Positions 25,057-42,766 of a stretch of 64,000 bases of DNA are shown here, piece after piece. The notes below the pieces were generated by a model. That model saw nothing but the letters and a program-made list of their open reading frames with translations. It was not told the origin of the DNA and did not search any database. A program made the translations under genes and the position numbers. Every line of letters starts with the position of its first letter. The first letter of the stretch is position 1. The stretch is from Actinomadura graeca (GTDB lineage Bacteria > Actinomycetota > Actinomycetes > Streptosporangiales > Streptosporangiaceae), in NCBI RefSeq assembly GCF_019175365.1, contig NZ_CP059572.1:868001-932000 (forward strand), given 5' to 3'.

Positions 25057-25740
25057 ATGGTCCACATGCGGTTGCCGGAACTACCGGAGCATCCGGTCGA
25101 GTTCGAAGCGGAGGCGCGGGTCCGCGCTCCCGGAGGGGTCTCCGGAGGGCCGCAGGGCTCCCTCCAGGGCCGCGTCCTGCTGGGCGGGCCGGTCGCCTTT
25201 CCGATGAACGCGAAGCGCTACCCCGATATGCGCTCCTACCTGGAAAGCGACAAGGACCACCGCTATCACGAGGTGCACCTGTCCCTCAGCTTCGCCGACC
25301 CGGACGACGGCCCGCGGCTGCACTCGGTCATGGTCGGTGTCACGTTGAGCGCGCCTGCGCCGGCGGAGCCGCCGATCGCCTGGTCGCTGGCGCCGTCGCT
25401 GATCGACGACCCGTCCAAGCGCGACCTGCGGATCGAGTTGCGGCCCCAGCTGAAGCTCGCCGGGGTCGAGGTGTCCGCCGGTGGCGTGACGGGCTCCCTT
25501 CCCCGCGCGCGTGAGCCGTTCCTCCTCGCGTTGCGCGAGCTGCGGTCCGACCCGGGATGGGAGCTGAGACGCACCAAGGGCCTGCCGCTGGAGGGGAAGC
25601 AGCGCCTGGTGATGATCGTCCGGGGGGATCGGAAGGCGGACACGACGCTCGGCCTGGAGGTCACGGCCACCACCAGGTCCTCCGTCCTGCGCCGCTACCG
25701 GGCGGTCGCCGATCCGCTGCGGCTGTCGGCGGACCTCTGA
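25057..25740 (+). CDS. Unknown first gene of the conflict operon
   Basis: 227 aa, no recognised family. The N-terminal half includes an aromatic/charged strip (KRYPDMRSYLESDKDHRYHE) followed by alternating beta-strand-like stretches (VHLSLSFAD, HSVMVGVTLSA, LRIELRPQLKLAG, RLVMIVRGD), suggesting an all-beta or alpha+beta protein. No signal peptide or membrane segment. ATG 25066 is an alternative start. It precedes the CHAT gene by three bases, so the two are probably cotranslated and may interact. Confidence 0.7.
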   Translation: MVHMRLPELPEHPVEFEAEARVRAPGGVSGGPQGSLQGRVLLGGPVAFPMNAKRYPDMRSYLESDKDHRYHEVHLSLSFADPDDGPRLHSVMVGVTLSAPAPAEPPIAWSLAPSLIDDPSKRDLRIELRPQLKLAGVEVSAGGVTGSLPRAREPFLLALRELRSDPGWELRRTKGLPLEGKQRLVMIVRGDRKADTTLGLEVTATTRSSVLRRYRAVADPLRLSADL

Positions 25741-25743
25741 CCG

Positions 25744-26559
25744 ATGAGCGACGAACTGACCGAGGCGGAGATCGACGCGTTCGCCCGGGCCTATCCCTCC
25801 GTCCGGGCCGAGAAGTTCCTCTGGGGCGTCGGCTTCCCGGACAGGACGATGCCGAGCACCGTCCTGAACTCCGGGGACTTCTGGAGCGAGGTCTCCCGGG
25901 CCCTCGCCAACGGCGCCCTGCCCGGTGGGCGGCGCCGGATCCTCGCCGCCGCCCACCGGGCGTTCCCGGCCGGTGAGGCGTTCGCGGCGGGGCGGGTGCG
26001 GCGGGTGCTGCTGATCGGGGCGAGTCCCGACGAGGACGACGCGGTCCGGGCGGACCGGGAGCTGCGGGAGATACGCGCCGCGGCGCGGCTCGGGCATCTC
26101 GACGTCTCCGCGGTGCTGGCGGCCCAGGCGTCCGACCTGCGCGAGATCCTCCGGGCGCGGCCCGACGTCCTGCACCTGTCCACGCACGGCGACGGCTCGC
26201 TGCTGTACTTCGAGTCCTCCTTCGGCGACCGGCAGGCCGTTCCGGTCACCGAGGTCGCCGCGACGCTCGCCCGGTACCGGGACGCCGACGGCGTGCGGCT
26301 CGGCGGCCTGGTGCTCGCGTCCTGCGAGAGCGAGGCGGCCGCCGAGGCGTTCCTGGACGTGGCCGACTCCGTCGTCGCGCACCGCGGGCCGCTCGACGAC
26401 GCCTGCGCGGTGCTGTTCACCCGCCGGTTGTACGAGGGGTTGCGCGACGTGCCGTCCCTGGTCCGGGCCGCGCGGGACGCCGCCGACGACATGGCCCGCG
26501 AGGACGAGGAGTGCGGTGGGATCGCGGGCAACCTGATGACCTTCGGCGAGGGGTGCTGA
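25744..26559 (+). CDS. EAD1-CHAT caspase-like protease
   Basis: 271 aa. Residues about 4-85 match the pattern of effector-associated domain 1 (EAD1), a death-like adaptor: LTEAEIDAFARAYP, FLWGVGFPDR, DFWSEVSRALANG, RRILAAAHRAFP. The remainder is a CHAT/caspase-like peptidase fold: RVRRVLLIGASP, then LSTHGDG with H148, and VLASCESEA with C194, the expected His-Cys dyad. In family knowledge such proteases are effectors held inactive until the system is triggered. The target protein is unknown. It is linked to the E2 protein of the same operon, which carries a similar N-terminal adaptor. Confidence 0.75.
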   Translation: MSDELTEAEIDAFARAYPSVRAEKFLWGVGFPDRTMPSTVLNSGDFWSEVSRALANGALPGGRRRILAAAHRAFPAGEAFAAGRVRRVLLIGASPDEDDAVRADRELREIRAAARLGHLDVSAVLAAQASDLREILRARPDVLHLSTHGDGSLLYFESSFGDRQAVPVTEVAATLARYRDADGVRLGGLVLASCESEAAAEAFLDVADSVVAHRGPLDDACAVLFTRRLYEGLRDVPSLVRAARDAADDMAREDEECGGIAGNLMTFGEGC

Positions 26560-26560
26560 C

Positions 26561-27577
26561 ATGGGCCCGGCCTGGCGGACGGCGCTGCTGGCCTCGGCCG
26601 AGCCGGGCGGGCGGGTGCGGTGCGGGCTCTGCCCCTTCGGCTGCGTCCTGGCGGAGGGCCGGACCGGGCCGTGCCGCGTCCGGCGGAACAGGGCCGGGAC
26701 CCTGGAGACCGCCACGTTCACCGCCGCGGTCGCGCACCTGGACGCCGTCGAGCGCAAGCCCTTCTATCATCTGAGCCCCGGCGCGAAGGTGCTCACGGTC
26801 GCCGGGCCGGGCTGCACCTTCGCGTGCGGGTACTGCGTCAACCACAGGCTCTCCCAGTACGGCCGCGAGGACACCGCGCCCTGGATCGGCACACCGGCGC
26901 TTCCCGGGGACCTGGCCGCGCGGGCCCGCGCGGACGGCGCGATGCTCGGCCTCTCCTACTCCGAGCCCTCACTGGCCCCCGAGCTGACGCTCGCCCTCGC
27001 CGAACACGGGCTCCCGATCGTCTGGAAGTCCAACGGGTTCCTCACCCCCCAGGCGATCGACCTGGTCGCCCCGGTGCTGACCGCCGTGAACATCGACGTG
27101 AAGGCCGCCGATTCGCGCGCCCACCGGGCACTGACCGGCGCGCCACTCGAACCCGTCCTCGAATCCATCGCGGGTTTCCGGGCCGCGGGCGTCTGGGTGG
27201 AGGTCAGCACGCCCCTCATCCCCGGGGTCTCCGCCTCGCCTGGGCAGCTCGAAGCGATGGCGACGACGCTGGCGGACCTCTCCCCCGACCTCCCGTGGCA
27301 CCTGCTCCGGTTCACCCCGGACTTCAAGATGCGGCGGGAGCGGCCGACACCGCCCGAGGATCTCGCGTCCGCACGGGAGATCGGCCGCAAAGCGGGCCTC
27401 CGGTACGTCTACGTCGAAAGGGCCCTCGGCGCGGAGGGCCGCAGGACGCTCTGCCCCGGATGCGGGAGCACGCTGGTGGAGCGCGGCATCTGGGAGACGG
27501 CCGGCTCTCGCCTGGACGCGGGCGCCTGCCCGGACTGCGGCACGCGCGTGCCAGGCCGGTGGAGGGTGGGCACGTGA
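26561..27577 (+). CDS. Radical SAM enzyme (AmmeMemoRadiSam/PFL-activase-like)
   Basis: 338 aa. The 4Fe-4S/SAM motif CTFACGYC gives C85, C89 and C92. The N-terminus has a Cys cluster (CGLCPFGCV, C38) and the sequence follows AmrS-type proteins (DAVERKPFYHLSPG, then WKSNGFLTPQAI and VNIDVKAAD). A zinc-ribbon-like end has CPGCG and CPDCG. The reaction is unknown in this family. No AMMECR1 or Memo gene is nearby. Tight coupling (one base after CHAT, four-base overlap with the WD40 gene) makes it a true operon member; it might modify a system protein by radical chemistry. Confidence 0.82.
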   Translation: MGPAWRTALLASAEPGGRVRCGLCPFGCVLAEGRTGPCRVRRNRAGTLETATFTAAVAHLDAVERKPFYHLSPGAKVLTVAGPGCTFACGYCVNHRLSQYGREDTAPWIGTPALPGDLAARARADGAMLGLSYSEPSLAPELTLALAEHGLPIVWKSNGFLTPQAIDLVAPVLTAVNIDVKAADSRAHRALTGAPLEPVLESIAGFRAAGVWVEVSTPLIPGVSASPGQLEAMATTLADLSPDLPWHLLRFTPDFKMRRERPTPPEDLASAREIGRKAGLRYVYVERALGAEGRRTLCPGCGSTLVERGIWETAGSRLDAGACPDCGTRVPGRWRVGT

Positions 27578-30500
27578 GCGATCCGCGACTCGACGCCTGG
27601 GCCGCCGCCCACGCCCGCTCGGCGGGCCGCGCGGGCGTCGGCTCCCGTCCGGGCACGACGGGCGGAGACGGCGACCTCCTCGACGTCGGGACGTGGCTGC
27701 CCGGCCCCGAGGTGGTCCGTTCCCTCGACTGGAAGCCGGCGGACGACGGCGAGCCGCTGCTGGCGTGCGGGAACGGCGAAGGCGTCACCATACTCGGCGG
27801 AAGCCAGGGGGAAAGGCGGGGAAGCTGGTTCCATGCGGGGCTGCTGGTGCGCTGGGCACAGGCGGCGGGCACGTGGCATCTGTTGTCCACAGACGGTCTG
27901 CGGACCACGCTGTGGCATCCCGACTCGCCGGGCTCCACTCGGACCCGGTATGCCAGTGTCGAGGGCGAGTCCGTTCGTGCCATCGCCTTCGACGGCCTCC
28001 GCGAGCTGATCGCCACCGGCAGCACCGATGGCGTCGTGCGCGTATGGGGAATCAACGAGCCGGATCCGAGTTCCATCTCCAGGCTGGTGGGGCACTCGGA
28101 CCTCGTCCTCTCCGTCGGCTGGAGCGCACACGGCCTGCTGGCCAGCGGGAGCGCCGACGGGACCGTCCACGTGTGGGACTGGCAGCGGCACCAGCGGCTC
28201 CATGTGCTCGCGCATCGCGCCTGGGTCTCCGATGTCGCGTTCGCCGAGATGCCCGATGGGGAATCGCTGCTCGCGAGTGCCGCGAACGACGGCTTCGCGC
28301 GTATCTGGAATCCCCTGACCGGCGATCTCCTGCACACCTTGCGCGGGCACTTGATGGAGGTCTCCTGCGTCGACTGGACGGTCCTGCCGGACGGGCGGGC
28401 CCTCCTCGCAACGTGCAGCTACGACCGGACCGTGCGTGTGTGGGACGGCCGGACGGGTGTGTGCCTCGCGACGTCCGATGATCTGGGCGGGGTCCTCCAC
28501 GCCGTTTCGTGGGGCCGGAGCCCCGACGGCCGCCTTCTCCTGGCCGCCGGAGGGGCCACCGACGGCATCCGCGTGTTCTCCCTGACGCTTCCCGATGCGC
28601 CCCGGGCGACGGCCGCAGTGGCACCCACGGGCGTCCCGGAGGTGATCCCGCCCGTCGAGGAAGTCCTCATCAACGATCCGGTGCCGACGCCCGGCCGGGC
28701 GTTGCCGGGTGGGGTGAACGCCGTCGTCGAGCGGCTCGGCATCCGCATCGTGCGGCGCGAGACCGGCGAGGAGGTGGCCCGCCTCGCCGGTCACACCGAG
28801 CCGATCACGTCGTACGACTGGACCGCCGATTCCGAGGGCAGGCTCGTGCTCGCCGCCGGCGGGGAGACCGGGCAGCTCTGCGTCTGGTACGTCGAGTCGG
28901 GCCGCCTGATCACCGCCGTCACCTGCCCCGGCCGGGTGACGGCGGTGGCGCTGGCCGCGCTGCCCCAGGGGCGTCTCGTGGCGGTGGCCGGAACCGCGTC
29001 CGGGGAGCTCACGCTCTGGGACGAGACCGGCGACCGCCCGCTGCCCCTTCCCGGGCACACCTATGTCGCCGGGAACGTGCCGGGACACGGCGGCGCGATC
29101 ACCTCGGCCAGGTGGGCGGTGCTGTCGGACGGCCACGCGCGGCTGGCGACCGCCGACGACCAGGGCAAGGTCCAGATCTGGGACGAGCGCGGACGTTTCA
29201 GCATGTCCATGCCCCATCACGTGTACCCGATCACGTCGCTCCGGTGGGCCGTGCTCCCGGACGGGACCGCCTATCTCGCCATCTTCGCGTCGTCCGAGAT
29301 CCTCATCGTCGACAAGGGCGGCACCGTCCTGCGGGCGTTCCCCCTTCTCCAGAGTGAGCCGCTGACGTCCGTGGACCTGACGGCCCTTGCCGACGGGCGT
29401 CTCCTGCTGGCGACGGTCGGGTTCGCCACCCGCGAGGTCCGCGTCCACGACGCCCGCACCGGCGCCGCCCACCGGCTCGGGACCCATGTCGGGACGGCGG
29501 AGCCTCCGACGGTGTCCTGGATCCGGCAGGAGCACGGACCACTCCAGATCGTCCTCGGCGACTCGAACCAGAGCGGTGTCTCCGACGTCACGGTGACGCC
29601 GCCTCCGCCCGGGAGCGGGCCGCCTCCCGCCGCCGCGGACGCGCCCGCCCCCAGCCGGGCGCTCGTCCCGGCCAGGCTCGGGCTGCTCAAGCTGGGGTCG
29701 GGGGCACTGTGGCCGGCGCTCGGGCTCGTCGCGGATCTGCTCAGCCTCACCGGGCGGCACACCGGGGAGCTGCACGACCCGCGGCTCGCCGTGCTGGAGG
29801 CGCATCCCGGGGTCGCCCGCCTGCGTCAGCTGGGCTGGCCGGCCGCCGCGCGCGTCGCGTTCGCCGCGCTGCTGGCGTCCCGGCTGCCGGACGACGCCGG
29901 GTTCGGCCCGCCGGGTGCCGGGGTGCGGCGTCTGGAGGAGGCGCTCGGGCGCGCGCTGGCGACGGCGACGCTGCCCGCCGCCGAGCCGGCCGCGGAGCCG
30001 GAGGCGCTCGCCGCGGCGGCGGACGAGATCACCCAGCAGACCGTCGCGCTGCTCGCGCTGATCGGGCCGCGGGCCGCGGCCGAGGACCCGCTGCTCCCGC
30101 TGCACCTCGGCCACCTGGAGGTGGCGCTGCCGCCGCTGACGGACCGGCAGCTGCGGCTGCTCGCCCAGCACGGCCACCCGCCCGACCGGCGGCTGCGCCG
30201 GTCCGGCGGGGGGACGCCGCGCCACACGCCGGGCACCGCCGGGATCGTCCGGCACGGCCTGCTGCGGCACATGCTCCACACCGACCTGGCGCTGCCCCCG
30301 GACCTGCTCGCGCTCCGCAGGCTGGAGAACCAGCTGCTCTACCGGCGGCACACGACGCCGCAACCGCCGACGCCCCGGCCGCTGACGCTCGTTTTGGACA
30401 CCACGCCGCCGACGTACGGGACGGTCGAGCTGGTCCTGCGGATGGCCGTCCACGCGCTCACGGTCGCGTCCTGGGAGCACGGCCTGGAACCGGTGCTGGT

Positions 30501-30843
30501 GACCCTCACCGACCCGGACCGGGCTCTGACGCTGACCGGGCCCAGGCAGCTGCTGACGATGTGGACCAGCAGGACCCTCCAGCCCCCGTATCCGGCGCTG
30601 GACCGCGCCCTCGACACCGCCGCGCAGACGGGCCGCACGACGGTGCTGCTCCTGCACCACCACAGCGCCGGGAAGGACCGCGCACCCGGTCCCGCCACGC
30701 CGTTCGTCACCACACGCCACGCCGTCGAGCCCGCACGGCCGCGGCCGGCGCACCCGGACCACCACGAGCTGCCCCCCGAGCCGGGCGGCATGGAACTGGA
30801 CGACCTCGTCAGCGCCCTGCTCCTCCCGGGGGCGGCGCGATGA
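27574..30843 (+). CDS. WD40 beta-propeller protein with vWA-like C-terminal domain
   Basis: 1089 aa from GTG 27574. Residues about 45-690 contain many WD40-type blades (GSTDGVVRVWG, SADGTVHVWD, ANDGFARIWN, CSYDRTVRVWD, ADDQGKVQIWD), probably two propellers. A proline-rich linker leads to a helical region (about 690-930). From about 935 a vWA-like fold begins: LTLVLDTTPPTYG with D942, but the DxSxS metal site is incomplete. This joins the beta-propeller and vWA components of MoxR-vWA-beta-propeller ternary systems in one chain; the MoxR gene is at 38230. Likely role: sensing or scaffolding. No membrane segment. Confidence 0.8.
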   Translation: MSDPRLDAWAAAHARSAGRAGVGSRPGTTGGDGDLLDVGTWLPGPEVVRSLDWKPADDGEPLLACGNGEGVTILGGSQGERRGSWFHAGLLVRWAQAAGTWHLLSTDGLRTTLWHPDSPGSTRTRYASVEGESVRAIAFDGLRELIATGSTDGVVRVWGINEPDPSSISRLVGHSDLVLSVGWSAHGLLASGSADGTVHVWDWQRHQRLHVLAHRAWVSDVAFAEMPDGESLLASAANDGFARIWNPLTGDLLHTLRGHLMEVSCVDWTVLPDGRALLATCSYDRTVRVWDGRTGVCLATSDDLGGVLHAVSWGRSPDGRLLLAAGGATDGIRVFSLTLPDAPRATAAVAPTGVPEVIPPVEEVLINDPVPTPGRALPGGVNAVVERLGIRIVRRETGEEVARLAGHTEPITSYDWTADSEGRLVLAAGGETGQLCVWYVESGRLITAVTCPGRVTAVALAALPQGRLVAVAGTASGELTLWDETGDRPLPLPGHTYVAGNVPGHGGAITSARWAVLSDGHARLATADDQGKVQIWDERGRFSMSMPHHVYPITSLRWAVLPDGTAYLAIFASSEILIVDKGGTVLRAFPLLQSEPLTSVDLTALADGRLLLATVGFATREVRVHDARTGAAHRLGTHVGTAEPPTVSWIRQEHGPLQIVLGDSNQSGVSDVTVTPPPPGSGPPPAAADAPAPSRALVPARLGLLKLGSGALWPALGLVADLLSLTGRHTGELHDPRLAVLEAHPGVARLRQLGWPAAARVAFAALLASRLPDDAGFGPPGAGVRRLEEALGRALATATLPAAEPAAEPEALAAAADEITQQTVALLALIGPRAAAEDPLLPLHLGHLEVALPPLTDRQLRLLAQHGHPPDRRLRRSGGGTPRHTPGTAGIVRHGLLRHMLHTDLALPPDLLALRRLENQLLYRRHTTPQPPTPRPLTLVLDTTPPTYGTVELVLRMAVHALTVASWEHGLEPVLVTLTDPDRALTLTGPRQLLTMWTSRTLQPPYPALDRALDTAAQTGRTTVLLLHHHSAGKDRAPGPATPFVTTRHAVEPARPRPAHPDHHELPPEPGGMELDDLVSALLLPGAAR

Positions 30844-31097
30844 CCCGGACACAGCGCGCGGGAGCCGCCTCCATGGACAAGCACACGTTCGTCCCCTCGC
30901 TGCCCGACCTCATCGACCCCGGCGAGTACGCCGCGCACCCCGAGGGCGGCCTGGTGCGGCTGAAGATCACCGTGACCGGGAACGGCGTCGAGGTCCTCGG
31001 CGACGGCATGCGCCCCGAGCACATCGAGGCCGTCCTGCGGAGCCTGTCCGGCCCGGACGACGAGGGGCCCGAGATGGAGCAGATGCTGTGCGGATAG
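30840..31097 (+). CDS. Small protein ending Cys-Gly, candidate ubiquitin-like modifier or partner
   Basis: 85 aa from ATG 30840 (ATGA overlap); ATG 30873 would give 74 aa. The core VRLKITVTGNGVEVLG then MRPEHIEAVLRSL predicts two strands followed by a helix. An acidic flexible tail ends MEQMLCG. It lies directly before the RING-like, E1 and E2 genes. An exposed C-terminal glycine beside an E1 gene is what a conjugated modifier would show, but the fold is too short to be called ubiquitin-like with confidence. Confidence 0.6.
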   Translation: MTRTQRAGAASMDKHTFVPSLPDLIDPGEYAAHPEGGLVRLKITVTGNGVEVLGDGMRPEHIEAVLRSLSGPDDEGPEMEQMLCG

Positions 31098-31654
31098 AGA
31101 ACGAGCTCCAGCGGGGCATCGACGAGGGTCTCGTCCCGCGCCCGGAGGAACCGGACGACGGCGACGCGGGCGGCGTCGCGGTGACCGCTCCCCCGTCCTG
31201 GTGGTTCAGCCTGGACTGCCGATCCTGCGGGCACACGTTCAGACGCGGCGACCGGGTCCGGGTGGACGCGGAGAACCGCACCGCCGAGCACCTGGAACCC
31301 GGCCTGGGCTGCGCGGGCGGCCCTGCCGCCGAGCGGACGACCGAGGCGGACGAGTTCGCCGCCGGGCTGCTGTCGGCCTGGACGACGGACGCGCCGGTGG
31401 TCCGCCTCGCCGACGGCGACCCGCGGCTCCCCCGGCCGGGGCAGGGCCCGGCGCCGCGGTGCCTGCACTGCGCCAACACCTTCCGCCCGGGCGAGTACGT
31501 CGTGGTCTGCCCGTGCCACCGCGACGACCCGGTGTGCGACGCGGCCGTGCACCGGGACCCCGCGCGGGGCCTGCCGTGCTGGGAGCGCTGGCGCCCGGAC
31601 GGGACGGTCACGATCTGCCCCGTCGCCAAGGCCAGGGCGGACGGGAATGGCTGA
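31088..31654 (+). CDS. RING-like zinc-finger protein, candidate E3
   Basis: 188 aa from GTG 31088. A first knuckle has C44-x2-C47 with H68 or C75 as further ligands. The C-terminal finger is C125-x2-C128-x12-C141-x-C143-H144-x5-C150-x4-H155-x8-C164-x12-C177-P178, a spacing compatible with a two-zinc treble clef of the RING type. Bacterial RING proteins encoded with E1, E2 and JAB genes have been described by comparative genomics (Burroughs and Aravind). It overlaps the small protein by ten bases and the E1 by eight. Role as E3 is inferred from sequence and place. Confidence 0.65.
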   Translation: MRIENELQRGIDEGLVPRPEEPDDGDAGGVAVTAPPSWWFSLDCRSCGHTFRRGDRVRVDAENRTAEHLEPGLGCAGGPAAERTTEADEFAAGLLSAWTTDAPVVRLADGDPRLPRPGQGPAPRCLHCANTFRPGEYVVVCPCHRDDPVCDAAVHRDPARGLPCWERWRPDGTVTICPVAKARADGNG

Positions 31655-34312: not shown

Positions 34313-35331
34313 GCGGCTACGAGGTCGAGCTGTTCCGCGGCGAGGAGCTCCGGCCGAACGGGCGGCTGCCGCTGGAGCCGCTGCTGCGCCGGTTCTTCGA
34401 AAGCCACCTCGACCAGCGGCTCGACGGCGCCGTGATCCAGCTGCTGTTCCTGCCCGACCCGGAGACGGCGGCGTTCTCCAGCGAGCAGACCGGCGGGTTC
34501 TCCTTGGCCAACCTCCGGCCGCGGTACGGCCACGTGCAGGTGAAGGTCCTCCTCGACGGCGAGCTGCTCTACCAGCATCCCCATCCGGTGAGCGAGCTGC
34601 TGGGACGGGTGCTGCGCGAGACGCTCACCGAGCGGGCGCCGCAGGAGCGGCGCTGGGGCGTCGGCCTGCGCGGGCCGAACCTGGACCAGGTCCCGCTCGT
34701 CAGGCCGGTCCCGGAGATGGACCACGGCGTGCAGATCGAGGTCGGCGCCCGGCGCGGGCGCGTCTTCCAGATGGAGGAGCTGCAACCGCCCGACGCCCCG
34801 CTCCGCACGCTGGCAGACCTCGGCGCGGACGTGCCGGACGGCGGCCCCGGCGGTGAGGCGGCGGCGCCCGTGTCGGTGGTGATCGGCAAGCGCCTGTACG
34901 AGGCGTTCACCGCCGGGCACCCGTTCTCCGCCGAAGTGGAGGAGGGCGGGTTCCTCGCGGGCCGCGTCTACCGGAACGCCGACGCGCCCGGCTGCCATCT
35001 CATCGAAATGACCGCGCTCATCCCGGCCGAGCGGACCGGCGCGTCGCTGCTGGAGTTCACGTTCACCGGCGAGAGCTTCCTGCGCGTGGGCGCCGCGCTC
35101 GACGCCCGCCACGACGGCGAGGAGCTGGTCGGCTGGTACCACACGCACCTGTTCGCGGCCGGGCGCGGCTTCGGGCTGTCGTCGGTGGACATGCGGCTGC
35201 ACCGCTCCACCTTCCAGCGGCCCTGGCAGGTCGCCGCGCTGGTCAACATCTCCGCGGGCGGCCGGCTGCTGCGGTTCTACCGGCGCACCGACGAGGGGAT
35301 GGCGCGCACCCCCTACTGGACGGTGCCGTGA
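34309..35331 (+). CDS. JAMM/JAB metalloprotease, candidate deconjugase
   Basis: 340 aa from ATG 34309 (ATGA overlap with the E2). The C-terminal domain has the JAMM zinc site: E211/E212 in VEEGGFLAG, H278-T-H280 in GWYHTHLF, and S291 to D294 in SSVD. There are ten residues between the second His and Ser instead of the standard seven, so a small loop is inserted. The N-terminal 190 residues are not recognised (LPLEPLLRRFFESHLD). By analogy with eukaryotic and bacterial E1/E2/JAB operons it would cleave modifier precursors or isopeptide conjugates. Confidence 0.85.
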   Translation: MSGYEVELFRGEELRPNGRLPLEPLLRRFFESHLDQRLDGAVIQLLFLPDPETAAFSSEQTGGFSLANLRPRYGHVQVKVLLDGELLYQHPHPVSELLGRVLRETLTERAPQERRWGVGLRGPNLDQVPLVRPVPEMDHGVQIEVGARRGRVFQMEELQPPDAPLRTLADLGADVPDGGPGGEAAAPVSVVIGKRLYEAFTAGHPFSAEVEEGGFLAGRVYRNADAPGCHLIEMTALIPAERTGASLLEFTFTGESFLRVGAALDARHDGEELVGWYHTHLFAAGRGFGLSSVDMRLHRSTFQRPWQVAALVNISAGGRLLRFYRRTDEGMARTPYWTVP

Positions 35332-36197
35332 TGGGGGCCGTGGAGACGGCGCGGCGGATCCTCGACTGGGTCGCGCGGCCCACCGGCCTTGTCCCGAACG
35401 GGACGCTGTGGGAGTCCTCCGAGCTGGCCGCGCCGGGGCAGGCCGTCCTGGACAGGCTGCGCTCGGTCACACGCACCGCGAACGCGCTGGCCGGTGCGGG
35501 CGATCCCCCGTTCGGGGACGCGGCGCCGGTCGGGCTGGGGGCCGTCCTGCTCGCGGCGGCGATCGGCGGGCGCGAGCAGGCCGACCACGCCGAGCGGATC
35601 GCGAGGGCGAGCACGCCGCCGCGAGACGCCGGCGGTGCGCCCGGCTGGCACGACCTCTCCGCCCGGAACGCGGTGCTCCTGCCCGTCCTGCGGGCATCGC
35701 CCCGGTGGCGCACCGACGGCGCCCTCGTCCAGAGCCTCCTGCACGCCTCGCCGCTGACCGCCGTCCTGCACCACCCGCCCGGGGGCGCCGCCGCGGAGCG
35801 GAACTACCCCGCGGCCGAACGGACGGCGGAGACACTGCTGGAGGCGCCGCGCGGACGCGAGGTCCTCGTCGCGGCGCTGGCGGCCGACAGCCGGGTCCCC
35901 GACGTGCTGGCCTGGCGCGCGCACCTGCTCAACCTCTGGCTCCGGCACGGGCGCACCGACCTCGTCCTCGACACCTACGCCCTCGCGCGGCTGCGGTACG
36001 GCGAACGCTGGGACGAGCAGATAGGGGCGGCGTTGAACTGGCACGGCAGGCCCGACCCGGTGATGACCGGGACCGCCCGCTACTGGACGGCGGCGGAGCG
36101 GGTGCCGCTGCGGCTCCGGCGCCCCGTCGCCCGGGGCCACGAGAGGGCGCTCACGCTGGTCCGCCGCCACCGCAACTGGACAGGAGGAACGGGCTGA
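35331..36197 (+). CDS. Unknown helical protein of the conjugation operon
   Basis: 288 aa from ATG 35331 (TGATG junction; GTG 35328 is equally possible). It is rich in Ala, Arg and Leu and predicted mostly alpha-helical, with repeated helical stretches such as LGAVLLAAAIGG, AERTAETLLEAPRG, REVLVAALAADS and AWRAHLLNLWLRHGR. No catalytic motif or membrane segment is seen. Its location between the JAB and AAA genes suggests a scaffold or substrate adaptor; this is inference from place alone. Confidence 0.7.
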   Translation: MGAVETARRILDWVARPTGLVPNGTLWESSELAAPGQAVLDRLRSVTRTANALAGAGDPPFGDAAPVGLGAVLLAAAIGGREQADHAERIARASTPPRDAGGAPGWHDLSARNAVLLPVLRASPRWRTDGALVQSLLHASPLTAVLHHPPGGAAAERNYPAAERTAETLLEAPRGREVLVAALAADSRVPDVLAWRAHLLNLWLRHGRTDLVLDTYALARLRYGERWDEQIGAALNWHGRPDPVMTGTARYWTAAERVPLRLRRPVARGHERALTLVRRHRNWTGGTG

Positions 36198-38233
36198 TGC
36201 CACCGCGACGTCCCCGGCTCAGGTTCGTCAGCACGGATCCGCAGGCGTTCGACGACCTCGCGATCCTCCACAACGACGACTGGACGCTGGGCCGGCTGCT
36301 GAGCGAGAGTCCCGCGTTCGCGCTGGAGGCGCTCGACCCCGACTACCTGAAGGTCGCCCTCAGCTCGCTGAACGTCGGCGCGACCGCCGCCGCCGAGGGT
36401 GTCGCGCTCCACCTGCCCCCGGGGGTCCCGCTCGCCGCCCTCTGCCGGGCCGGGCCCGGCGGGGACGGCCAGGCGGACGAGGCCGCCGCCGAAATCACCA
36501 CGGACCCGGACGTCCCCGGTGACGCGGCGGCCACCGGCGCCGGGCGGGAACTGGCCGAGGCCGGCGGGCATCCGGAGAACCTCGGCGAGCGCGCCGCCGT
36601 GCTCATCGCGCACCAGGTGGAGATCGACCGGGTGGGCGCCTACCTCAGGCGCGGCCTGTCGGTGCTGATCCAGTGCGAGAAGCTGCTGGTCGAGCACCTC
36701 ATCGACGAGATCGTCGGCCAGTCAGGGCGGACCCGCACCGTGATCAAGGCCGAGGCGGGCGAGGCGGCCGAGTCGCCGCTGGGGCTGCCTCCCGCCGGCC
36801 GCCGCGCGTCCCTGCTCGCCGCGCTCGAACGGGAGGTCAACGACGACGACGAGGACAGGATCGTCGTCGTGCCGCACCTGGACCTGCTCGCGGGCGGCAG
36901 CAACACGGCGATCAGCTCCGAGGCCCGCGAGCTCACCGACGTGCTCTACGAGCGGAGCACACGGGTGCTGCTCGCCTTCACCGACCCGTCGCTGGTGCTG
37001 CCCGAGGTGCTGGCGGACCGGTTCGCGGTGCGGCTGTCCCTCGACGTGCTGCCCCGGGAGGTCGCCGCCACCGACGGCCGTCCCGTCCCGGTGGGGCAGG
37101 CGCTGGTCCGCAGGGAGGAGGCCGAGCTGTTCGCGCGGTTCGACCCGGTGGCCCTGTACAAGAACATCGCCGGCATGAACGCCGTCCGGCTCCGGCTCGG
37201 GATGCGCTTCGCCTACCACGAGCACCACCAGCGGCCCTCGCCGACCTTCACCGACCTGCTCCAGGAGCTGGCGCTGTTCAAGGCGCACACCTCCAACTCC
37301 TTCGAGGTGCCGAACGTGCCGTTCGACCGGATCGGCGGCTACCAGCCGGTCAAGGACGAGCTCCGCCGGGCCCTGACCATCATCTCGGGGGCGGCGGCGG
37401 GCCTGGCGGACCTGCCCGAGCCCGTCCGCCAGGACCTGGTGCCGCGCGGGTTCATCTTCCACGGCCCGCCCGGCACCGGGAAGACGCTGTTCGCGAAGGC
37501 CGTCGCGACCGAGCTGAACGCCACCGTCCTGGTGGTGTCGGGCCCCGAGGTCACCGACATGTACGTCGGCGAGAGCGAGCGCAAGGTGCGGGAGCTGTTC
37601 GCCGAGGCGCGGCGGAACGCCCCCTCGGTGCTGGTGTTCGACGAGTTCGACTCGATCGCCGCCAAGCGCACCGGCCGCGACGACGGCGGCAGCCGGGCCG
37701 GGAACGCGGTCGTCGCGCAGCTGCTGACCGAGCTGGACGGGTTCCGCCCCGAGGTGCCGGTGCTGATCATCGGCACCACCAACCGCATCGACATCATCGA
37801 CGACGCGCTGCTGCGGCCCAGCCGGTTCCGCGCCATCAAGATCGACCTCCCGGACGAGCAGGCCCGGCAGGCGATCGCCCGGGTCCACGCCGAGGCGTTC
37901 CTGCGGGAGCGGCCGGGCGAGGAGCTGCTGCGGGCGATCTCCCGCGCGACCGAGGGGTTCAACGGCGACGAGATCCGCTCGATCTTCCGGGACGCGCGGG
38001 CCGACGAGCTGATCAACGGCCCCGCCGCGCGCCCGGACGCCCACCGCCTCGGCGAGCTGATCGGCGCCCTGCACCGGGAGCGGCAGCAGCGCGAGGCCGA
38101 CCAGCGCAGGCCGGCGGGCCGGCCTGCGCCGGACACGGCCTACATCGCGCTCGACGCGCGCGCCCGGCCGTTCCTCGCGGAGATGACCGTCCCCGCGCAG
38201 CCCACCGGAAACCAGGAAGGCGGACACCAGTGA
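36197..38233 (+). CDS. Double-AAA ATPase (Cdc48/FtsH-like), candidate unfoldase
   Basis: 678 aa, with an AGGAGG-like site before ATG 36197. The C-terminal AAA domain is complete: Walker A GPPGTGKT at 423-430, VGESERKVRELF, Walker B VLVFDEFDS (D482, E483), sensor GTTNR, and SRH RPSRF. The N-terminal half (about 120-330) resembles a degenerate AAA module with a Walker-B-like RIVVVPHLDLL and ARELTDVLYERSTRVLLAFTD but no Walker A. No protease domain and no membrane helix, so it is closer to Cdc48/ClpX-like segregases than to FtsH. It may extract or unfold modified proteins. Confidence 0.88.
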   Translation: MPPRRPRLRFVSTDPQAFDDLAILHNDDWTLGRLLSESPAFALEALDPDYLKVALSSLNVGATAAAEGVALHLPPGVPLAALCRAGPGGDGQADEAAAEITTDPDVPGDAAATGAGRELAEAGGHPENLGERAAVLIAHQVEIDRVGAYLRRGLSVLIQCEKLLVEHLIDEIVGQSGRTRTVIKAEAGEAAESPLGLPPAGRRASLLAALEREVNDDDEDRIVVVPHLDLLAGGSNTAISSEARELTDVLYERSTRVLLAFTDPSLVLPEVLADRFAVRLSLDVLPREVAATDGRPVPVGQALVRREEAELFARFDPVALYKNIAGMNAVRLRLGMRFAYHEHHQRPSPTFTDLLQELALFKAHTSNSFEVPNVPFDRIGGYQPVKDELRRALTIISGAAAGLADLPEPVRQDLVPRGFIFHGPPGTGKTLFAKAVATELNATVLVVSGPEVTDMYVGESERKVRELFAEARRNAPSVLVFDEFDSIAAKRTGRDDGGSRAGNAVVAQLLTELDGFRPEVPVLIIGTTNRIDIIDDALLRPSRFRAIKIDLPDEQARQAIARVHAEAFLRERPGEELLRAISRATEGFNGDEIRSIFRDARADELINGPAARPDAHRLGELIGALHRERQQREADQRRPAGRPAPDTAYIALDARARPFLAEMTVPAQPTGNQEGGHQ

Positions 38234-39417
38234 GCCGCACCCCCGAACAGCTCGGGCTGGCCTTCGCGGGCCGGCTCCGCGCCGTCAAGGAACTGTTCGT
38301 CGACCGCGACGAGGTGGTGGACCTGCTCGCGCTCGGCGCCCTGTGCGGCGAGCACGTCCTGGTCGTCGGGCCGCCGGGCACCGCCAAGAGCCGGCTGCTC
38401 ACGCGGTTCTGCCGGCTCCTGGACACCGAGCCGTTCAGCTACCTGCTGACCCGCTTCACCGAGCCCGCCGAGATCTTCGGCTCGATCGACGTGAAGGAGT
38501 TCCAGGACAACAGCGTCTACAAGGTCAACACCGCGGGGATGCTGCCCGAGGCCCGCATCGCCCACCTCGACGAGGTGTTCCGGGGCAGCTCGGCGATCCT
38601 CAACACGCTGCTCACCCTGATCAACGAGCGGACGTTCCACACCGGCCAGACCTCGCTGCGGTGCCCGCTCATCACGCTGGTCGGCTCGGCCAACGACATC
38701 CCCGACGACCCCGAGCTGGCCGCCTTCAGCGACCGCTTCCTGCTGCGCTGCACGGTCGACCACGTCGGCGACGACGCCATCGAGGACCTGCTGGAGCTGG
38801 GCTGGCAGGACGAGCAGGACCGGATCAGGGCCGCCGGGCAGACCGGCGACGGCGGCGACGACCACGACCGCGACCTGGTGCCGCTGACCGCGCCGGAGCT
38901 CGCCACGCTCCAGCAGGCCGTCGCGAAGGTGGACCTCACCCCCGTCCGCGGCCCGTACGCCAAGATCCTCCAGGCGCTGCGCAGCGAGGGGGTCACCTTC
39001 TCCGACCGGCGCGCCGTCAAGGCGCAGAAGGTGTTCGCCGCGTCGGCGCTGCTGCGCGGCGGCCGCACCGCCGAGGAGGGCGACCTCGCCCGGCTGGTGC
39101 ACCTGTGGACCGACGCGCGCGACGAGGCCACGATTCGGCGGATCGCCGCCGACAGCGGCATCCCGGTGGACGAGCCCGGCGGCGGCACCCGCGACCCCGT
39201 GCTCATCGGGATCGACCTGCGGGAGATCGGCGAGCTGCGGGCGCGGGCCGCCACCGGCGCCGAGATCCAGCGGCTCGCGCAGGACAACCGGCGGCTCGCC
39301 AACGAGGTGCGCCGCCACCATCCCGGGGAGCCCGAGCTGCTCCGCGCGGTCGAGCGGGAGCAGACCGCGCTGATGACCAGGCTCCGCGAACTCGACCCGG
39401 ACAGGTGGCTGAGCTGA
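38230..39417 (+). CDS. MoxR-family AAA ATPase
   Basis: 395 aa from GTG 38230. Walker A GPPGTAKS is at 47-54. RFTEPAEIFG, then MLPEARIAHLDEVF (Walker B), ILNTLLTLINERTF and SANDIP..AFSDRFLLR are all standard for MoxR/RavA proteins, which act as chaperones with vWA-domain partners. The likely partner is the C-terminal vWA-like domain of the WD40 protein at 27574. A C-terminal helical tail (EIQRLAQDNRRLANEVRRHH) probably forms a coiled coil. Core member of the ternary system. Confidence 0.92.
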   Translation: MSRTPEQLGLAFAGRLRAVKELFVDRDEVVDLLALGALCGEHVLVVGPPGTAKSRLLTRFCRLLDTEPFSYLLTRFTEPAEIFGSIDVKEFQDNSVYKVNTAGMLPEARIAHLDEVFRGSSAILNTLLTLINERTFHTGQTSLRCPLITLVGSANDIPDDPELAAFSDRFLLRCTVDHVGDDAIEDLLELGWQDEQDRIRAAGQTGDGGDDHDRDLVPLTAPELATLQQAVAKVDLTPVRGPYAKILQALRSEGVTFSDRRAVKAQKVFAASALLRGGRTAEEGDLARLVHLWTDARDEATIRRIAADSGIPVDEPGGGTRDPVLIGIDLREIGELRARAATGAEIQRLAQDNRRLANEVRRHHPGEPELLRAVEREQTALMTRLRELDPDRWLS

Positions 39418-40196
39418 TGTGCAATCCGCGCAGGATCCAGGTCAGGGCGACCCGGCAGCTGGCCGAGGCGTGGGACCAGGAGGTCCGCCGCCGCGTCGTC
39501 CTGTCCGGCGAGGCGTCCGGCGAGGCGCGGGTCCGCGAGCGGCTCGCCGCGACCGTCGGCGCCCCCACGCTCGCGGCGCTCGCCCGCGTCCTCGCCCGCA
39601 CCGAGGGCTGGCAGGAGGGCGAGGACGGCGTGTTCCGCCACCGGCTCGACGGCGGCGTGATCTCCTTCGACCCCGACTCCCGCGAACTGGAGATCGTGGC
39701 GCGGGTGAGCGCCCGGGTCGAGGCGTCGGGTGAGGCGGTGACGATCGTGCGGGCGGAGGTCGGCGACCTCCTCCGGGCGTCCGGCACGGGGACATACTAC
39801 GACGACGAGTGGGGCGGGCACACCCGGGAACGCGCCGAGCGCACGGCGGACCTGGCCGCCGAGTCCGCCCTGGACGACGCGGCGGAACGGGCCCGCACCC
39901 GCGAACGCGAGCGCGCCGAGAGCGCACACGCCCAGGACGTGCGGGAGCAGGCCCGCAGGAACGCCGAGGACTCGCTGGCCGCCACCAGGCGCAAGCGCGA
40001 GCGGGAGCTGCGCGCCCAGGCCGCGGACGTGCTGGCCGCGATCGGCGAGACGGGCCGCGGCCTGTTCCACCGGGCGCTGGCCGAGGCGTACCGCGACGCG
40101 ATCCTCGCCTACGCCCGCACGCACGGCGCCACCGGCGTCAGCTGCGCCGAGGGCGCCGACGGCGTCGTGGACATCCAGTTCGAGCTGGAGGTCTGA
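39417..40196 (+). CDS. Unknown MoxR-system accessory protein with coiled coil
   Basis: 259 aa, starting at a TGATG junction. An N-terminal alpha+beta part (residues 1-125; RRIQVRATRQLAEAW, GVISFDPDSRELEIVARVSA) is followed by a long charged coiled coil (about 130-205, many ERAER and RKRERE units) and a short C-terminal domain (GATGVSCAEGADGVVDIQFELEV). This layout fits the poorly known accessory families of MoxR-vWA ternary systems. No enzyme motif is seen. Confidence 0.75.
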   Translation: MCNPRRIQVRATRQLAEAWDQEVRRRVVLSGEASGEARVRERLAATVGAPTLAALARVLARTEGWQEGEDGVFRHRLDGGVISFDPDSRELEIVARVSARVEASGEAVTIVRAEVGDLLRASGTGTYYDDEWGGHTRERAERTADLAAESALDDAAERARTRERERAESAHAQDVREQARRNAEDSLAATRRKRERELRAQAADVLAAIGETGRGLFHRALAEAYRDAILAYARTHGATGVSCAEGADGVVDIQFELEV

Positions 40197-40197: not shown

Positions 40198-40455
40198 ATG
40201 CGCGTCCGGGTGAGGTTCCGCTACGACCCCGAGACCGGGCGGGTCGAGACGTTCCGCGTCGACGACGTGTCCGCCGGCCCGCAGGAGGCCGGCCACGACG
40301 ACGAGCACGACCGGATCGCCGCCGAGATCGCCGGTGTCGTCGAGCGGGGCGCGCTCATCGAGGAGGTCGCGCCCGGCCAGGCCGCCGCGGCGCCCCGGCC
40401 GCTCACGGAGGACGACGGCGGCGAGCAGGAGCGCGAGCGGGGCCGCGATGCCTGA
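40198..40455 (+). CDS. Small unknown accessory protein
   Basis: 85 aa with GGAGG seven bases before ATG 40198. The N-terminus forms a strand pair (MRVRVRFRYDPETGRVETFRVDD), then an acidic helix and a disordered acidic tail (TEDDGGEQERERGRDA). It sits between two other accessory genes and overlaps the next by eight bases. The ordered part could be a small adaptor fold; no family is recognised. Confidence 0.7.
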   Translation: MRVRVRFRYDPETGRVETFRVDDVSAGPQEAGHDDEHDRIAAEIAGVVERGALIEEVAPGQAAAAPRPLTEDDGGEQERERGRDA

Positions 40456-41002
40456 CGCCACCCTCTACCGCGAGGCCGCCGCCTGCTACGAGCGGGCACG
40501 GCACTGGACGGACGCGGCCCGCTGCTACCGCGCCGCCGGGATGCCGCTCCGCGCCGCCGCCCTGCACGAGCGGCTCGGCCAGTTCGACGCGGCGGCCGAG
40601 GACTACGGCGCGGCGGGCGAACCGGAGACCGCGGGCTGGCTGCTGGTGCACCGCCTCGACGCCCCCGGGCCCGCCCGGGACGCGGTCGCCCGCGCGTCCG
40701 ACGGGCCCCGGCGGGACCTGGTGCTCGCCCGCTGCGACCTCGCCGAGGGCGGCCCGCCCGCCCTGGTCCTGCCCGCGCTCCGCCGGGTCCGCGACGACCT
40801 CGCCGACCCCGGCCGCGTCCCCTATCCCCACCGCGACCTGGAGGAGTGGGGGCTGATCGTGGCCGAGCTCGCCCAGCGGTTCGACCAGGCCGCCCTGATC
40901 TTCGCCGCCGCGGTCCGCGGCCGCCGCCCGGGCGCGACCGGCCGGTGGAGCCGCTGGGCCGACCGTGTCCTGGGCACCCCGCTCGTGATCGCCGAAGGAT
41001 GA
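40448..41002 (+). CDS. TPR-like helical accessory protein
   Basis: 184 aa. The first 70 residues hold two to three TPR-like helical hairpins (YREAAACYERARHWTDAARCYRAAG, AALHERLGQFDAAAEDYGAAG), a protein-protein interaction module. The remaining helical part (ALRRVRDDLADPG, LEEWGLIVAELAQRFDQAALIF) has no known match. The C-terminus of the next gene contains a related short repeat (AELHSRNNQPLQAARLYERAAEE), which suggests both bind a common partner. Confidence 0.7.
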   Translation: MPDATLYREAAACYERARHWTDAARCYRAAGMPLRAAALHERLGQFDAAAEDYGAAGEPETAGWLLVHRLDAPGPARDAVARASDGPRRDLVLARCDLAEGGPPALVLPALRRVRDDLADPGRVPYPHRDLEEWGLIVAELAQRFDQAALIFAAAVRGRRPGATGRWSRWADRVLGTPLVIAEG

Positions 41003-41005
41003 GCC

Positions 41006-42766
41006 ATGTCGCCCCGATTCCTGCGCCGTCCCAAGAACGACGGCACCCGCCCGCCGTCCGGGCATCTGGAGCCGCTGCCCGCCGCGCCCCCGCCGGACGA
41101 GGCCGCCGCGACCACCGCGCCGAACCCCGTCCCGGCCCCCGCGCCCTCCCCCGCGGGACCGCCTTCGCCGCCGTCTCCTCCAAGGCCGCCCGCCGGGTCG
41201 GCTGAGGCGCTGCCGCCCTTCTCCCTCCCGGCCCCCGGCGGACGGCGGGCGCCCGCGGCCCCGGGCCCGCCGCGGCTGGCGGCGCGCTTCCCCACCGCGA
41301 CCGCGGCACTGGTGTTCGCGGGCCAGCTCCACCCGGCCGATGACCTGCGGAACGCGCGCTGCCTGCGCGGCGACTCCGCCTGGTGGGTGCCGATGGACCT
41401 CGGTCTCGAAGCCGCCAGGGACGCGGCGCTGAGCTGCGGCGGGCAGGTCCACGTGGAGGTCGGCGGGCTGCTCGTCCCCGACCGCGGCTGGGGGGACCCG
41501 CCCGCCTCGGGCACCGGCCCGGCCCTCGCCGCGCTCACCGCCGCCTCCCTCCTCGACCTGGTCCGCACCGCCGGACTGAGCAGGAGGCCGCCGACGCCCG
41601 TCACCGCGGTCACGCTGCTGCTCCCCGGCGCGCACCTGCCGGGGACCGTGCGCCGGTCCCTGGACCTCGGGCTCACCGTCACCTACCAGCGCGCCGGGCT
41701 CAGGCCCCTCTTCGCCAACGGCCCCGGCAGGCCCGCCTATGCGGTCACCCTGGCCGCCGCGACCGGCGAGATACCCGCCGCACTGATCACCGCGCTGGAG
41801 GACGACCCCTTCGTGGTGGTCTGCCGCCGGGTGTCGGAGCGGCTGCTGGTCCAGCACCGGCACGAGTCCCCGCTCGCCGACGGCGCGCTCTCGGCCCTGG
41901 TCGACGAGGACGCCTGGGTGCTCGCCGCGGACGGGCACGGCTGCCTGCGGCTCGTCCTGCACGGCGAGCCGCAGCCGGGCACCGCCTTCGTCCGCCTGGG
42001 CACCGACCTCCCCCTGGCCGATCCGCCGCCCGACGGCTGGCCCGACGTGATCCCCGAGCCGCCAGAGCTGACCGTGGTCCCCGCCCGGACCCGCGGGCTC
42101 CCGGTCGACGCCGTCCTGCTCACCGACGAGGCGCTGGCCGCGCTCCCCATGGTGCTGGAGGGCCATCCCCTCGCCGAGACGGCCCTGCTCGTGCGGGGCC
42201 GCGACCGCCACCTGCTCACGGCGCCCGGCGGGCTGCTGGAGGACGTCCCGGTGGGCGAGGCCCTCTACTGCGCCGGGCCCGGGCAGTTCTTCCTGCCCCT
42301 CGGCCACCGGCTCAGGCCCCGGCTCCCCGCGGCCGCCCGGGGCGCCCTGCTCCCCGCGGCGGACGGGCGGGCCGTCGTCATGACGCCCCGCGAGTGCCTC
42401 GGCTTCGACCTGGCGACCGCCGTGCCCGTCTGGACGCTGTGGGCGGGGCCGGCCCCGGAGGTCGACCCGCAGCTGCCCGCCGCCGTGACCGGGCTCCTCC
42501 ACGAGATCGACCGGGACCTCGTCCCCGCGCCCAGGACGTCGAAGCGGGAGCCGAGGGACCCGTCGCCGCGCCCCTCCCGGGCGCGCTCCGCCCCCGTCCG
42601 GGACCTGAGGCGGACGCCGCGCCGGGCCCCGTCGTGGCAGGAGGAGGCGTACGCCCTGGAGGTCGCCGGGGAGCTGAAGCGCGCCGCCGAGCTGCACAGC
42701 CGGAACAACCAGCCCCTCCAGGCGGCGCGCCTGTACGAGCGCGCCGCCGAGGAGCCCGGCCTGTGA
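41006..42766 (+). CDS. Large unknown accessory protein, last gene of conflict operon
   Basis: 586 aa. A long Pro/Ala-rich disordered N-terminus (1-90) is followed by two structured blocks (about 95-260 and 265-500) with alternating strands and helices, e.g. VPMDLGLEAARDAALSCGGQ, FVVVCRRVSERLLVQH, AVVMTPRECLGFDLATAVPVW. A basic linker leads to a TPR-like C-terminal hairpin (545-586). It is reminiscent of the bpX-type components of MoxR-vWA-beta-propeller systems, but I cannot assign a specific family. It ends the run of tightly spaced genes. Confidence 0.7.
   Translation: MSPRFLRRPKNDGTRPPSGHLEPLPAAPPPDEAAATTAPNPVPAPAPSPAGPPSPPSPPRPPAGSAEALPPFSLPAPGGRRAPAAPGPPRLAARFPTATAALVFAGQLHPADDLRNARCLRGDSAWWVPMDLGLEAARDAALSCGGQVHVEVGGLLVPDRGWGDPPASGTGPALAALTAASLLDLVRTAGLSRRPPTPVTAVTLLLPGAHLPGTVRRSLDLGLTVTYQRAGLRPLFANGPGRPAYAVTLAAATGEIPAALITALEDDPFVVVCRRVSERLLVQHRHESPLADGALSALVDEDAWVLAADGHGCLRLVLHGEPQPGTAFVRLGTDLPLADPPPDGWPDVIPEPPELTVVPARTRGLPVDAVLLTDEALAALPMVLEGHPLAETALLVRGRDRHLLTAPGGLLEDVPVGEALYCAGPGQFFLPLGHRLRPRLPAAARGALLPAADGRAVVMTPRECLGFDLATAVPVWTLWAGPAPEVDPQLPAAVTGLLHEIDRDLVPAPRTSKREPRDPSPRPSRARSAPVRDLRRTPRRAPSWQEEAYALEVAGELKRAAELHSRNNQPLQAARLYERAAEEPGL

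What the first reader, a model, noticed from the sequence alone, without database searches (positions are those of the whole stretch)
25057..42766. Complete candidate ubiquitin-like conjugation cycle embedded in a MoxR/vWA/beta-propeller conflict operon
Seen: sixteen plus-strand genes, nearly all with overlaps or gaps under 10 bases, encode E1 (GVGALG, C181), E2 (HPN, C412), JAMM peptidase (H278/H280/D294), RING-like Zn protein, a Cys-Gly-tailed small protein, a Cdc48-like AAA, a MoxR AAA, WD40-vWA, radical SAM, and an EAD1-CHAT protease. Known: comparative genomics has described bacterial E1/E2/RING/JAB sets and MoxR-vWA-beta-propeller ternary systems. Inferred: here a tagging machine, a segregase and a suicide-type protease form one defence or regulated cell-death system. 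I know of no characterised example with this full set.
Basis: partly seen in the sequence, partly recalled or inferred. Interest (0 to 1): 0.95.

Follow-up and report, generated by a model that had tools for sequence, protein, structure and literature searches.

The report
Bacterial ubiquitin-like FtsH ternary operon
An actinobacterium carries a 16-gene cassette that joins a ubiquitin-like tagging machine to a caspase-like protease, a kind of system predicted by computer in 2020, and comparison with its relatives now suggests exactly where the tag ends and is joined to its targets.

Summary
Sixteen plus-strand genes (25057-42766) encode E1, EAD1-Ubl-E2, JAMM, a RING-like protein, radical SAM, a beta-propeller protein, two AAA ATPases and EAD1-CHAT. 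The set is not new: six proteins match Pfam families named for it (fvm), and Kaur et al. 2020 describe it as the complex "FtsH ternary system". I found no experiment on it (open-licence library, listings). The RING-to-g15 gene order is kept in 21 compared systems where the DNA reaches, with losses in Frankia. Two things I did not see in the sections read. (1) In the E2 fusion the Ubl tail is always Ala then Gly or Ala (119 of 119), and one Frankia locus encodes the Ubl as its own gene ending exactly there...EATAG-COOH. This supports the 2020 guess that JAMM frees an EAD1-tagged Ubl. (2) The radical-SAM-linked peptide ends in Cys-Gly-COOH in 216 of 216 proteins; none of the 14 other well-sampled operon proteins has a fixed last residue. 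Peptide and radical SAM are both found in 19 of 21 systems, both missing in the same two. New member of a known kind.

The parts
23981..24272 (+). tRNA-Gly, tRNA-Cys, tRNA-Val; the 3' end of tRNA-Val is the left edge of the variable block that holds the operon (context, not part of the system)
   Evidence: ARAGORN; synteny with congeners G645 and G641 stops at 24272
25057..25740 (+). g1, 227 aa, no family; found in 5 of 20 other systems
25744..26559 (+). g2, EAD1-CHAT caspase-like protease (His148, Cys194), the effector
   Evidence: EAD1 4.4e-10, CHAT 4.2e-10
26561..27577 (+). g3, radical SAM enzyme (CxxxCxxC at residue 85) of the AmmeMemoRadiSam type
   Evidence: (TIGR04337 8e-63, 212 bits, below its cut-off of 220)
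27574..30843 (+). g4, WD40 beta-propeller protein with a C-terminal region taken for a divergent vWA domain
   Evidence: WD40 8e-36; vWA not confirmed
30873..31097 (+). g5, 74-aa radical-SAM-associated peptide ending Met-Leu-Cys-Gly-COOH (upstream ATG at 30840 gives 85 aa)
   Evidence: PF20007 6.5e-24; tail Cys-Gly in 216 of 216
31088..31654 (+). g6, RING-like zinc protein, predicted E3
   Evidence: thirteen Cys/His kept in 18 to 20 of 20 systems; Pfam only E 0.16
31647..32726 (+). g7, E1 (ThiF family), Cys181
   Evidence: 8e-37
32702..34312 (+). g8, fusion EAD1 - alpha/beta domain - Ubl - E2 (HPN 414, Cys437)
33407..33655 (+). Ubl (YukD-like) domain inside g8, residues 236-318
   Evidence: YukD 7.9e-07; AF2 strands and helix
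33665..33670 (+). Ubl tail at the Ubl-E2 junction, Ala322-Ala323 (Ala-[Gly/Ala] in relatives), predicted JAMM cut and E1 activation point
34309..35331 (+). g9, fvmJAB_N plus JAMM peptidase (E211, H278, H280, S291, D294)
   Evidence: 21 of 21
35328..36197 (+). g10, fvmX1
   Evidence: 4.4e-43
36197..38233 (+). g11, FtsH/Cdc48-like AAA ATPase, no HExxH motif
   Evidence: AAA 4.9e-41
38230..39417 (+). g12, MoxR ATPase with the GxxxTAKS P-loop variant
   Evidence: bpMoxR 7.6e-72
39417..40196 (+). g13, fvmX2
   Evidence: 1.2e-77
40198..40455 (+). g14, fvmX3, 85 aa
   Evidence: 1.2e-25
40448..41002 (+). g15, 184 aa, weak TPR-like signal under cut-off; found in 19 of 20 other systems
41006..42766 (+). 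g16, fvmX7
   Evidence: 2.3e-47

Best explanation
It is an FtsH ternary conflict system of the complex type. Proposed working: (1) the JAMM peptidase cuts the E2 fusion after Ala322-[Gly/Ala]323 and frees an EAD1-Ubl with an E1-competent tail; (2) E1 (Cys181) activates that tail and passes it to the E2 (Cys437), and with the RING-like protein it is joined to a target; (3) the EAD1 carried by the tag recruits the EAD1-CHAT protease to the tagged site by like-with-like contact, giving local proteolysis or cell death; (4) the MoxR and FtsH-type ATPases with the propeller protein and the fvmX proteins sense the trigger and control assembly; (5) the Cys-Gly-tailed peptide, modified by the radical SAM enzyme, is a separate, usually present input (signal or cofactor). 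Shown here: the parts, their conserved active-site residues, the Ala-[Gly/Ala] tail, one natural gene ending at that tail, co-conservation of the set. Inferred: every biochemical step, the order, the trigger and the role in defence. Steps 1 to 3 follow the proposal of Kaur et al.; the exact tail is added here.
For: Family matches. UBC fold. JAMM residues 21 of 21, E1 Cys181 20 of 20. Junction in the 120 listed E2 relatives: Ala 120 of 120, then Gly 78 or Ala 41 of 119, in an eight-residue coil just after the last Ubl strand; Ala-[Gly/Ala] in 21 of 21 systems. CBASS cGAS, conjugated by an E1-E2 protein, also ends in Gly or Ala; Gly to Ala reduced but did not abolish conjugation (PMC10097602, passages). 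Frankia G926 second locus: an EAD1-Ubl gene of 322 aa ends ...RVAFEATAG then TGA, next to an E1 gene; homology of a separate UBC gene begins at the next residue of the junction. No JAMM profile match over 20 bits in that 20 kb, as expected if JAMM is needed to free the fused form. fvmX2 and peptide over cut-off in the same 9 of 345 genomes.
Against: The split Ubl is a single case, and genes often split at domain borders. The same Frankia genome does carry a JAMM gene in its other, fused locus (L066), so absence beside the split gene says little. In the window the tail is Ala-Ala, not Gly. The peptide's Gly end is more strictly fixed than the Ubl's, so it could be the E1 substrate instead. JAMM could act only on conjugates. 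RING and vWA assignments are weak. No phage or cell-death evidence. The first G926 locus keeps E1, E2 and JAMM without peptide or radical SAM, but it looks broken (X1 split, no X2 or X3 match).
Confidence: 0.5

Rival explanations
1. The Cys-Gly-tailed peptide is the conjugated modifier (or a second one): radical SAM primes it, E1/E2/RING join its terminal Gly to targets, JAMM removes it; the fused Ubl only docks or regulates.
For: C-terminus Cys-Gly in 216 of 216 database peptides and 18 of 18 loci of the control table, while the commonest last residue of the other 14 well-sampled operon proteins reaches at most 8 of 20. The tail follows a linker of variable length. In 5 of the 7 systems where the radical SAM gene is apart from the peptide gene (window, G613, G398, G400, NEAU-GS5) the peptide gene is next to the RING gene. 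A non-beta-grasp substrate has a precedent in CBASS Cap2 (PMC10097602, PMC12355090, passages).
Against: The peptide tracks radical SAM, not E1: G926 has E1 twice but neither peptide nor radical SAM was found. An E1-Ubl gene pair occurs there without the peptide. In the other 2 of the 7 systems (G605, Catellatospora) the peptide gene is not next to RING, and in several systems the radical SAM-peptide pair lies at the far end from the ligase genes. Peptides named FxSxx-COOH, paired with another radical SAM class, are named for a C-terminal motif and are described without an E1 (Kaur et al.).
Confidence: 0.18
2. The Ubl is never released: the E2 fusion acts in one piece, and JAMM only trims conjugates.
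For: All 120 listed relatives and 21 of 21 systems keep Ubl and UBC in one chain.
Against: The junction limited to Gly or Ala and the split gene in G926.
Confidence: 0.17
3. Not a defence system but a regulated developmental or stress proteolysis system of actinobacteria.
For: No defence data. PADLOC models (10 of 16 proteins scanned) gave only partial matches to the E1, the AAA and the WD40 parts.
Against: Patchy occurrence (9 of 345 in the order; none of the 64 congeners over cut-off, two weak matches under it) and location as exchangeable cargo behind a tRNA fit defence or other accessory cargo better.
Confidence: 0.25
4. The genes are neighbours by chance or the open frames are spurious in GC-rich DNA.
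For: Many long spurious frames exist in this GC-rich DNA.
Against: GC3 pattern, family matches, gene order kept in other genomera; 10 other MoxR loci from the same sample match none of the other 15 profiles.
Confidence: 0.01

Closest known systems
FtsH ternary system, complex type (Kaur et al. 2020, PMC7159879)
   Same: Beta-propeller protein, MoxR with GxxxTAKS, FtsH-type AAA, fvmX proteins, E1, EAD1-Ubl-E2, RING-like, JAMM, EAD1-caspase, radical SAM and peptide.
   Different: No HExxH motif in any of the 16 proteins, whereas the linked peptide-processing systems are said to have a zincin. Tail conservation and the split Ubl gene were not seen in the sections read.
CBASS type II with Cap2 (E1-E2) and Cap3 (JAMM) (PMC10097602)
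   Same: E1, E2 and JAMM-type activities act on a C-terminal Gly or Ala; conjugation serves an effector system.
   Different: No CD-NTase among the Pfam matches; E1 and E2 are separate genes; a Ubl domain and a RING-like protein are present.
Beta-propeller MoxR-vWA ternary systems (Kaur et al. subsystem 4)
   Same: Related MoxR with the same P-loop variant.
   Different: Described as lacking FtsH. Ten MoxR loci fetched as comparison match none of the other 15 profiles; which subsystem they belong to was not tested.
Radical SAM peptide systems with FxSxx-COOH peptides
   Same: Small peptide named for its C-terminus, paired with a radical SAM enzyme.
   Different: Different radical SAM class and tail; here the peptide lies at the ligase operon in the systems where it was found, though G605 and Catellatospora carry the radical SAM gene on another contig.

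Membership tests
FtsH ternary system, complex type | MoxR component with GxxxTAKS P-loop | tested here: met
   GPPGTAKS at residue 47; bpMoxR 241 bits, cut-off 27
FtsH ternary system, complex type | FtsH-type protein with an active AAA copy | tested here: met
   AAA 140.7 bits at 420-546; GPPGTGKT
FtsH ternary system, complex type | Inactive N-terminal AAA copy in the same protein | tested here: inconclusive
   No Pfam family in the first 367 residues scanned
FtsH ternary system, complex type | Beta-propeller fused to a divergent vWA | tested here: inconclusive
   Propeller met; the C-terminal 219 residues give no Pfam family
FtsH ternary system, complex type | E1 and JAB as separate genes | tested here: met
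   ThiF 127 bits; fvmJAB_N 115 bits; active-site residues conserved
FtsH ternary system, complex type | RING-type E3 gene | tested here: inconclusive
   Prok-RING_1 E 0.16, under cut-off; Cys/His kept in 18 to 20 of 20
FtsH ternary system, complex type | EAD1-Ubl-E2 fusion | tested here: met
FtsH ternary system, complex type | Caspase-like effector with EAD1 | tested here: met
   EAD1 and CHAT over cut-off
FtsH ternary system, complex type | Memo-Ammecr1-related radical SAM with FtsH-associated peptide | tested here: met
   PF20007 84 bits; TIGR04337 212 bits, just below its own cut-off of 220
MPTase peptide-processing system (Kaur et al.) | Zincin metallopeptidase gene | tested here: not met
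   No HExxH in the 16 proteins; motif test only, the genome was not searched for one
CBASS type II | CD-NTase gene in the operon | tested here: not met
   No such Pfam match among the 16 proteins
Anti-phage defence | Protection from phage | not testable with these tools
   -

The most novel reading that the evidence does not exclude
The operon holds two E1-style tails with different jobs: an EAD1-Ubl released from a polyprotein, and a small, probably non-beta-grasp peptide whose invariant Cys-Gly end is primed by a radical SAM enzyme and then conjugated by the same E1/E2/RING, so that radical chemistry licenses a ubiquitin-like tag. A 2025 review (PMC12355090, passages) knew Cap2 as the only such system acting on a non-beta-grasp protein; this would be a second, and as far as I know the first gated by radical SAM chemistry.
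Probability: 0.15. Interest if true: 0.92.

Novelty: new member of a known kind. Interest (0 to 1): 0.55.

Why it matters
It is a bacterial system with much of the logic of eukaryotic ubiquitin plus caspase signalling (E1, E2, RING-like, JAMM, adaptor domain, caspase-like protease, AAA ATPases) in 18 kb, and I found no experiment on it in the library searched. The tail analysis turns a general guess into exact tests: which residue JAMM cuts, which carboxylate E1 activates, and what the radical SAM enzyme does to a peptide whose last two residues did not vary in 216 proteins.

Tried and rejected

Caveats on counts. One search uses the 120 best of 234 and the 120 best of 376 hits: 216 distinct, 24 shared; that search needs shared 5-residue words, which can favour like tails. 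One search used the 120 listed of 124 E2 hits (the window's own among them; only 7991 candidates were scored); one has a gap at the Gly/Ala position; Gly-Gly in 1 of 120; 41 of 120 have no Gly in the 12-residue junction. Alignment A2 used 55 sequences, the window's and 54 of the listed ones; n is 18 for the peptide, 16 to 21 for the 14 others, 6 for g1 (Leu 4 of 6); for g2 six of the rows are not CHAT proteins. The 21 systems are the window, the 12 loci and 8 further genomes (7, G926). CIT1 is cut by a contig end before E2, CiP1 after X1; Dd1 and G926 look broken. (no peptide in G740, G926) had no positive control in the call; one search had one for G740. The catalytic Glu of JAMM was picked by recalled motif. 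The split Ubl is n = 1: in 35 Frankiaceae genomes 5 matches reached the Ubl end, 4 of them in fusions. Kaur's later paper PMC8195603 came up and was not read.
Full report

What it is. The set equals the complex form of the FtsH ternary system of Kaur, Burroughs, Iyer and Aravind 2020 (PMC7159879; sections 14, 21, 22, 23 and 30 read, passages elsewhere). They list propeller-vWA, JAB, E1, RING, EAD1-Ubl-E2, EAD1-caspase, radical SAM and peptide, and suggest that JAB could free the Ubl. In the held open-licence library only that paper contains 'FtsH ternary' or 'FtsH-ternary' (11 papers held any of six terms), and the listings (6 papers; 20 shown of 57; 20 shown of 77) show no experiment on such a system. 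Subscription papers are not held.

Distribution. In 345 genomes of the order, fvmX2 and the peptide are each over cut-off in 9, the same 9. None of the 64 congeners (counted) is over cut-off for fvmX2; G647 and G652 have weak matches under it. The peptide was found in 1 of 396 genomes of the phylum sample, the window's own, and fvmJAB_N in 5 of 394 of the class sample, the window's own and four Frankiaceae. The first look scores a limited number of candidates per genome, so these are lower bounds. As read from the listing, the order RING-E1-E2-JAB-X1-FtsH-MoxR-X2-X3-g15 is kept wherever the fetched DNA reaches, with extra EAD1 genes between E1 and E2 in two Frankia loci and no X2 or X3 match in G926. 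X7 follows g15 except in NEAU-GS5, where it lies on the other strand. CHAT, propeller, radical SAM, peptide and g1 move around this core. Ten other MoxR loci, the best-scoring ones of the order sample outside the nine, match none of the other fifteen profiles in 16 to 20 kb.

Site. In congener G645 the DNA matches the window up to 24272, the last base of tRNA-Val, and again from 42469, that is 298 bases before the end of g16, to 48785; between them it holds about 22 kb of other genes, which by eye look like a siderophore cluster (not family-searched). In G641 the left match also ends at 24272; in G677 and G674 at 24375. No right-hand resumption was seen in the DNA fetched from G641 and G677, and in G674 only a 0.7-kb match at 49920. 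So the operon is exchangeable cargo behind a tRNA, with the right edge seen in one genome.

Active sites. JAMM E211, H278, H280, S291 and D294 are kept in 21 of 21; E1 C181, C162, C165, C241 and H244 in 20 of 20; thirteen RING Cys/His in 18 to 20 of 20. CHAT His and Cys are kept in the 15 of 21 systems with an EAD1-CHAT gene. Of the other six, CiP1 and Dd1 carry EAD1 on other proteins, and in CIT1, Dactylosporangium, the Streptomyces MAG and G926 the best hit was the E2 fusion's own EAD1, so no effector was identified there.

The Ubl tail. In the 120 listed relatives the junction reads Ala (120 of 120) then Gly (78) or Ala (41) of 119. It lies five residues after the last Ubl strand. Gly-Gly occurs in 1 of 120. 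The window and three close relatives (G613, G398, G400) have Ala-Ala, the other 17 of 21 systems Ala-Gly. Jenson et al. 2023 (PMC10097602, passages) report a Gly-or-Ala rule at the end of cGAS in operons with full-length Cap2 and Cap3. The strongest piece: Frankia G926 has a second locus at about 1.15 Mb with a 322-aa EAD1-Ubl gene whose protein ends ...RVAFEATAG at a TGA stop, an E1 gene beside it on the other strand, and 5.6 kb away a separate UBC gene whose homology begins at the next residue of the junction. No JAMM, RING, radical SAM or peptide match over 20 bits is listed in that 20 kb. It is one case, and the same genome has a JAMM gene in its fused locus.

The peptide. All 216 database peptides end in Cys-Gly, as do those of all 19 systems in which it was found (window; 17; the Streptomyces MAG). 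In the same systems no other operon protein has a fixed last residue. The tail follows a linker of variable length, as in a leader-core peptide. Peptide and radical SAM were both found in 19 of 21 systems and neither in two, CIT1 (G740) and G926; both exceptions are Frankia, one assembly is cut at the operon and the other operon looks broken, so this is not strong. In G605 and Catellatospora the radical SAM gene lies on another contig. The simplest reading is a radical-SAM-modified peptide with its own role, as Kaur et al. proposed; that it is also an E1 substrate is not excluded.

Mechanism. I commit to release of EAD1-Ubl by JAMM, activation by E1, transfer by E2 and RING, and recruitment of EAD1-CHAT to tagged targets under control of the two ATPases. 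Parts and tails are shown; all reactions, the trigger and the defence role are inferred.

Verdict. A real, conserved system of a known kind for which I found no experiment. The added value is the exact tail, the split gene and the invariant Cys-Gly end, which make the central question testable.

Noticed in passing
L145 (G926:C1:1146000-1165999), 3995-13487: Second locus of Frankia G926: separate EAD1-Ubl, UBC and E1 genes near an AAA_5 ATPase, an EAD1 protein and a kinase-like protein; possibly another ATPase-centred system that borrowed the Ubl cycle.
   Followed up: partly
window 24272 and 42469-42799: Left edge of a variable block at the tRNA-Val 3' end; several congeners carry extra 44-48 bp matches to that tRNA end elsewhere, as integrating elements could leave.
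   Followed up: partly
window 24273-25056: Stretch between the tRNA and the first gene with several GC-rich repeats of the type CTGGGGGGCGACCCCCAGACCCCCGATG (by eye).
   Followed up: no
window 42799-44124: Protein of no Pfam family, coiled-coil-like by eye, just right of the operon; an open frame with a like start lies at the same place in congener G645, so it is probably not part of the system.
   Followed up: partly
window 44432-47505: PLP-dependent decarboxylase and a weak AMP-binding match: perhaps the start of a biosynthetic cluster.
   Followed up: no
Frankiaceae genomes: 28 of 35 genomes match the EAD1-Ubl query, mostly over the EAD1 part only and often several times per genome.
   Followed up: no
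L005, L006/L069 (Frankia CiP1, Dd1): Extra EAD1 proteins between E1 and E2 genes or at the operon's end; in Dd1 an NTPase-like protein (by eye) carries EAD1 and the JAMM and FtsH genes look split.
   Followed up: partly
G000:C1:2965863-2966210 (L001): The one match to Prok-JAB (PF14464) in the window's genome; the window's own JAMM is under that model's cut-off.
   Followed up: no
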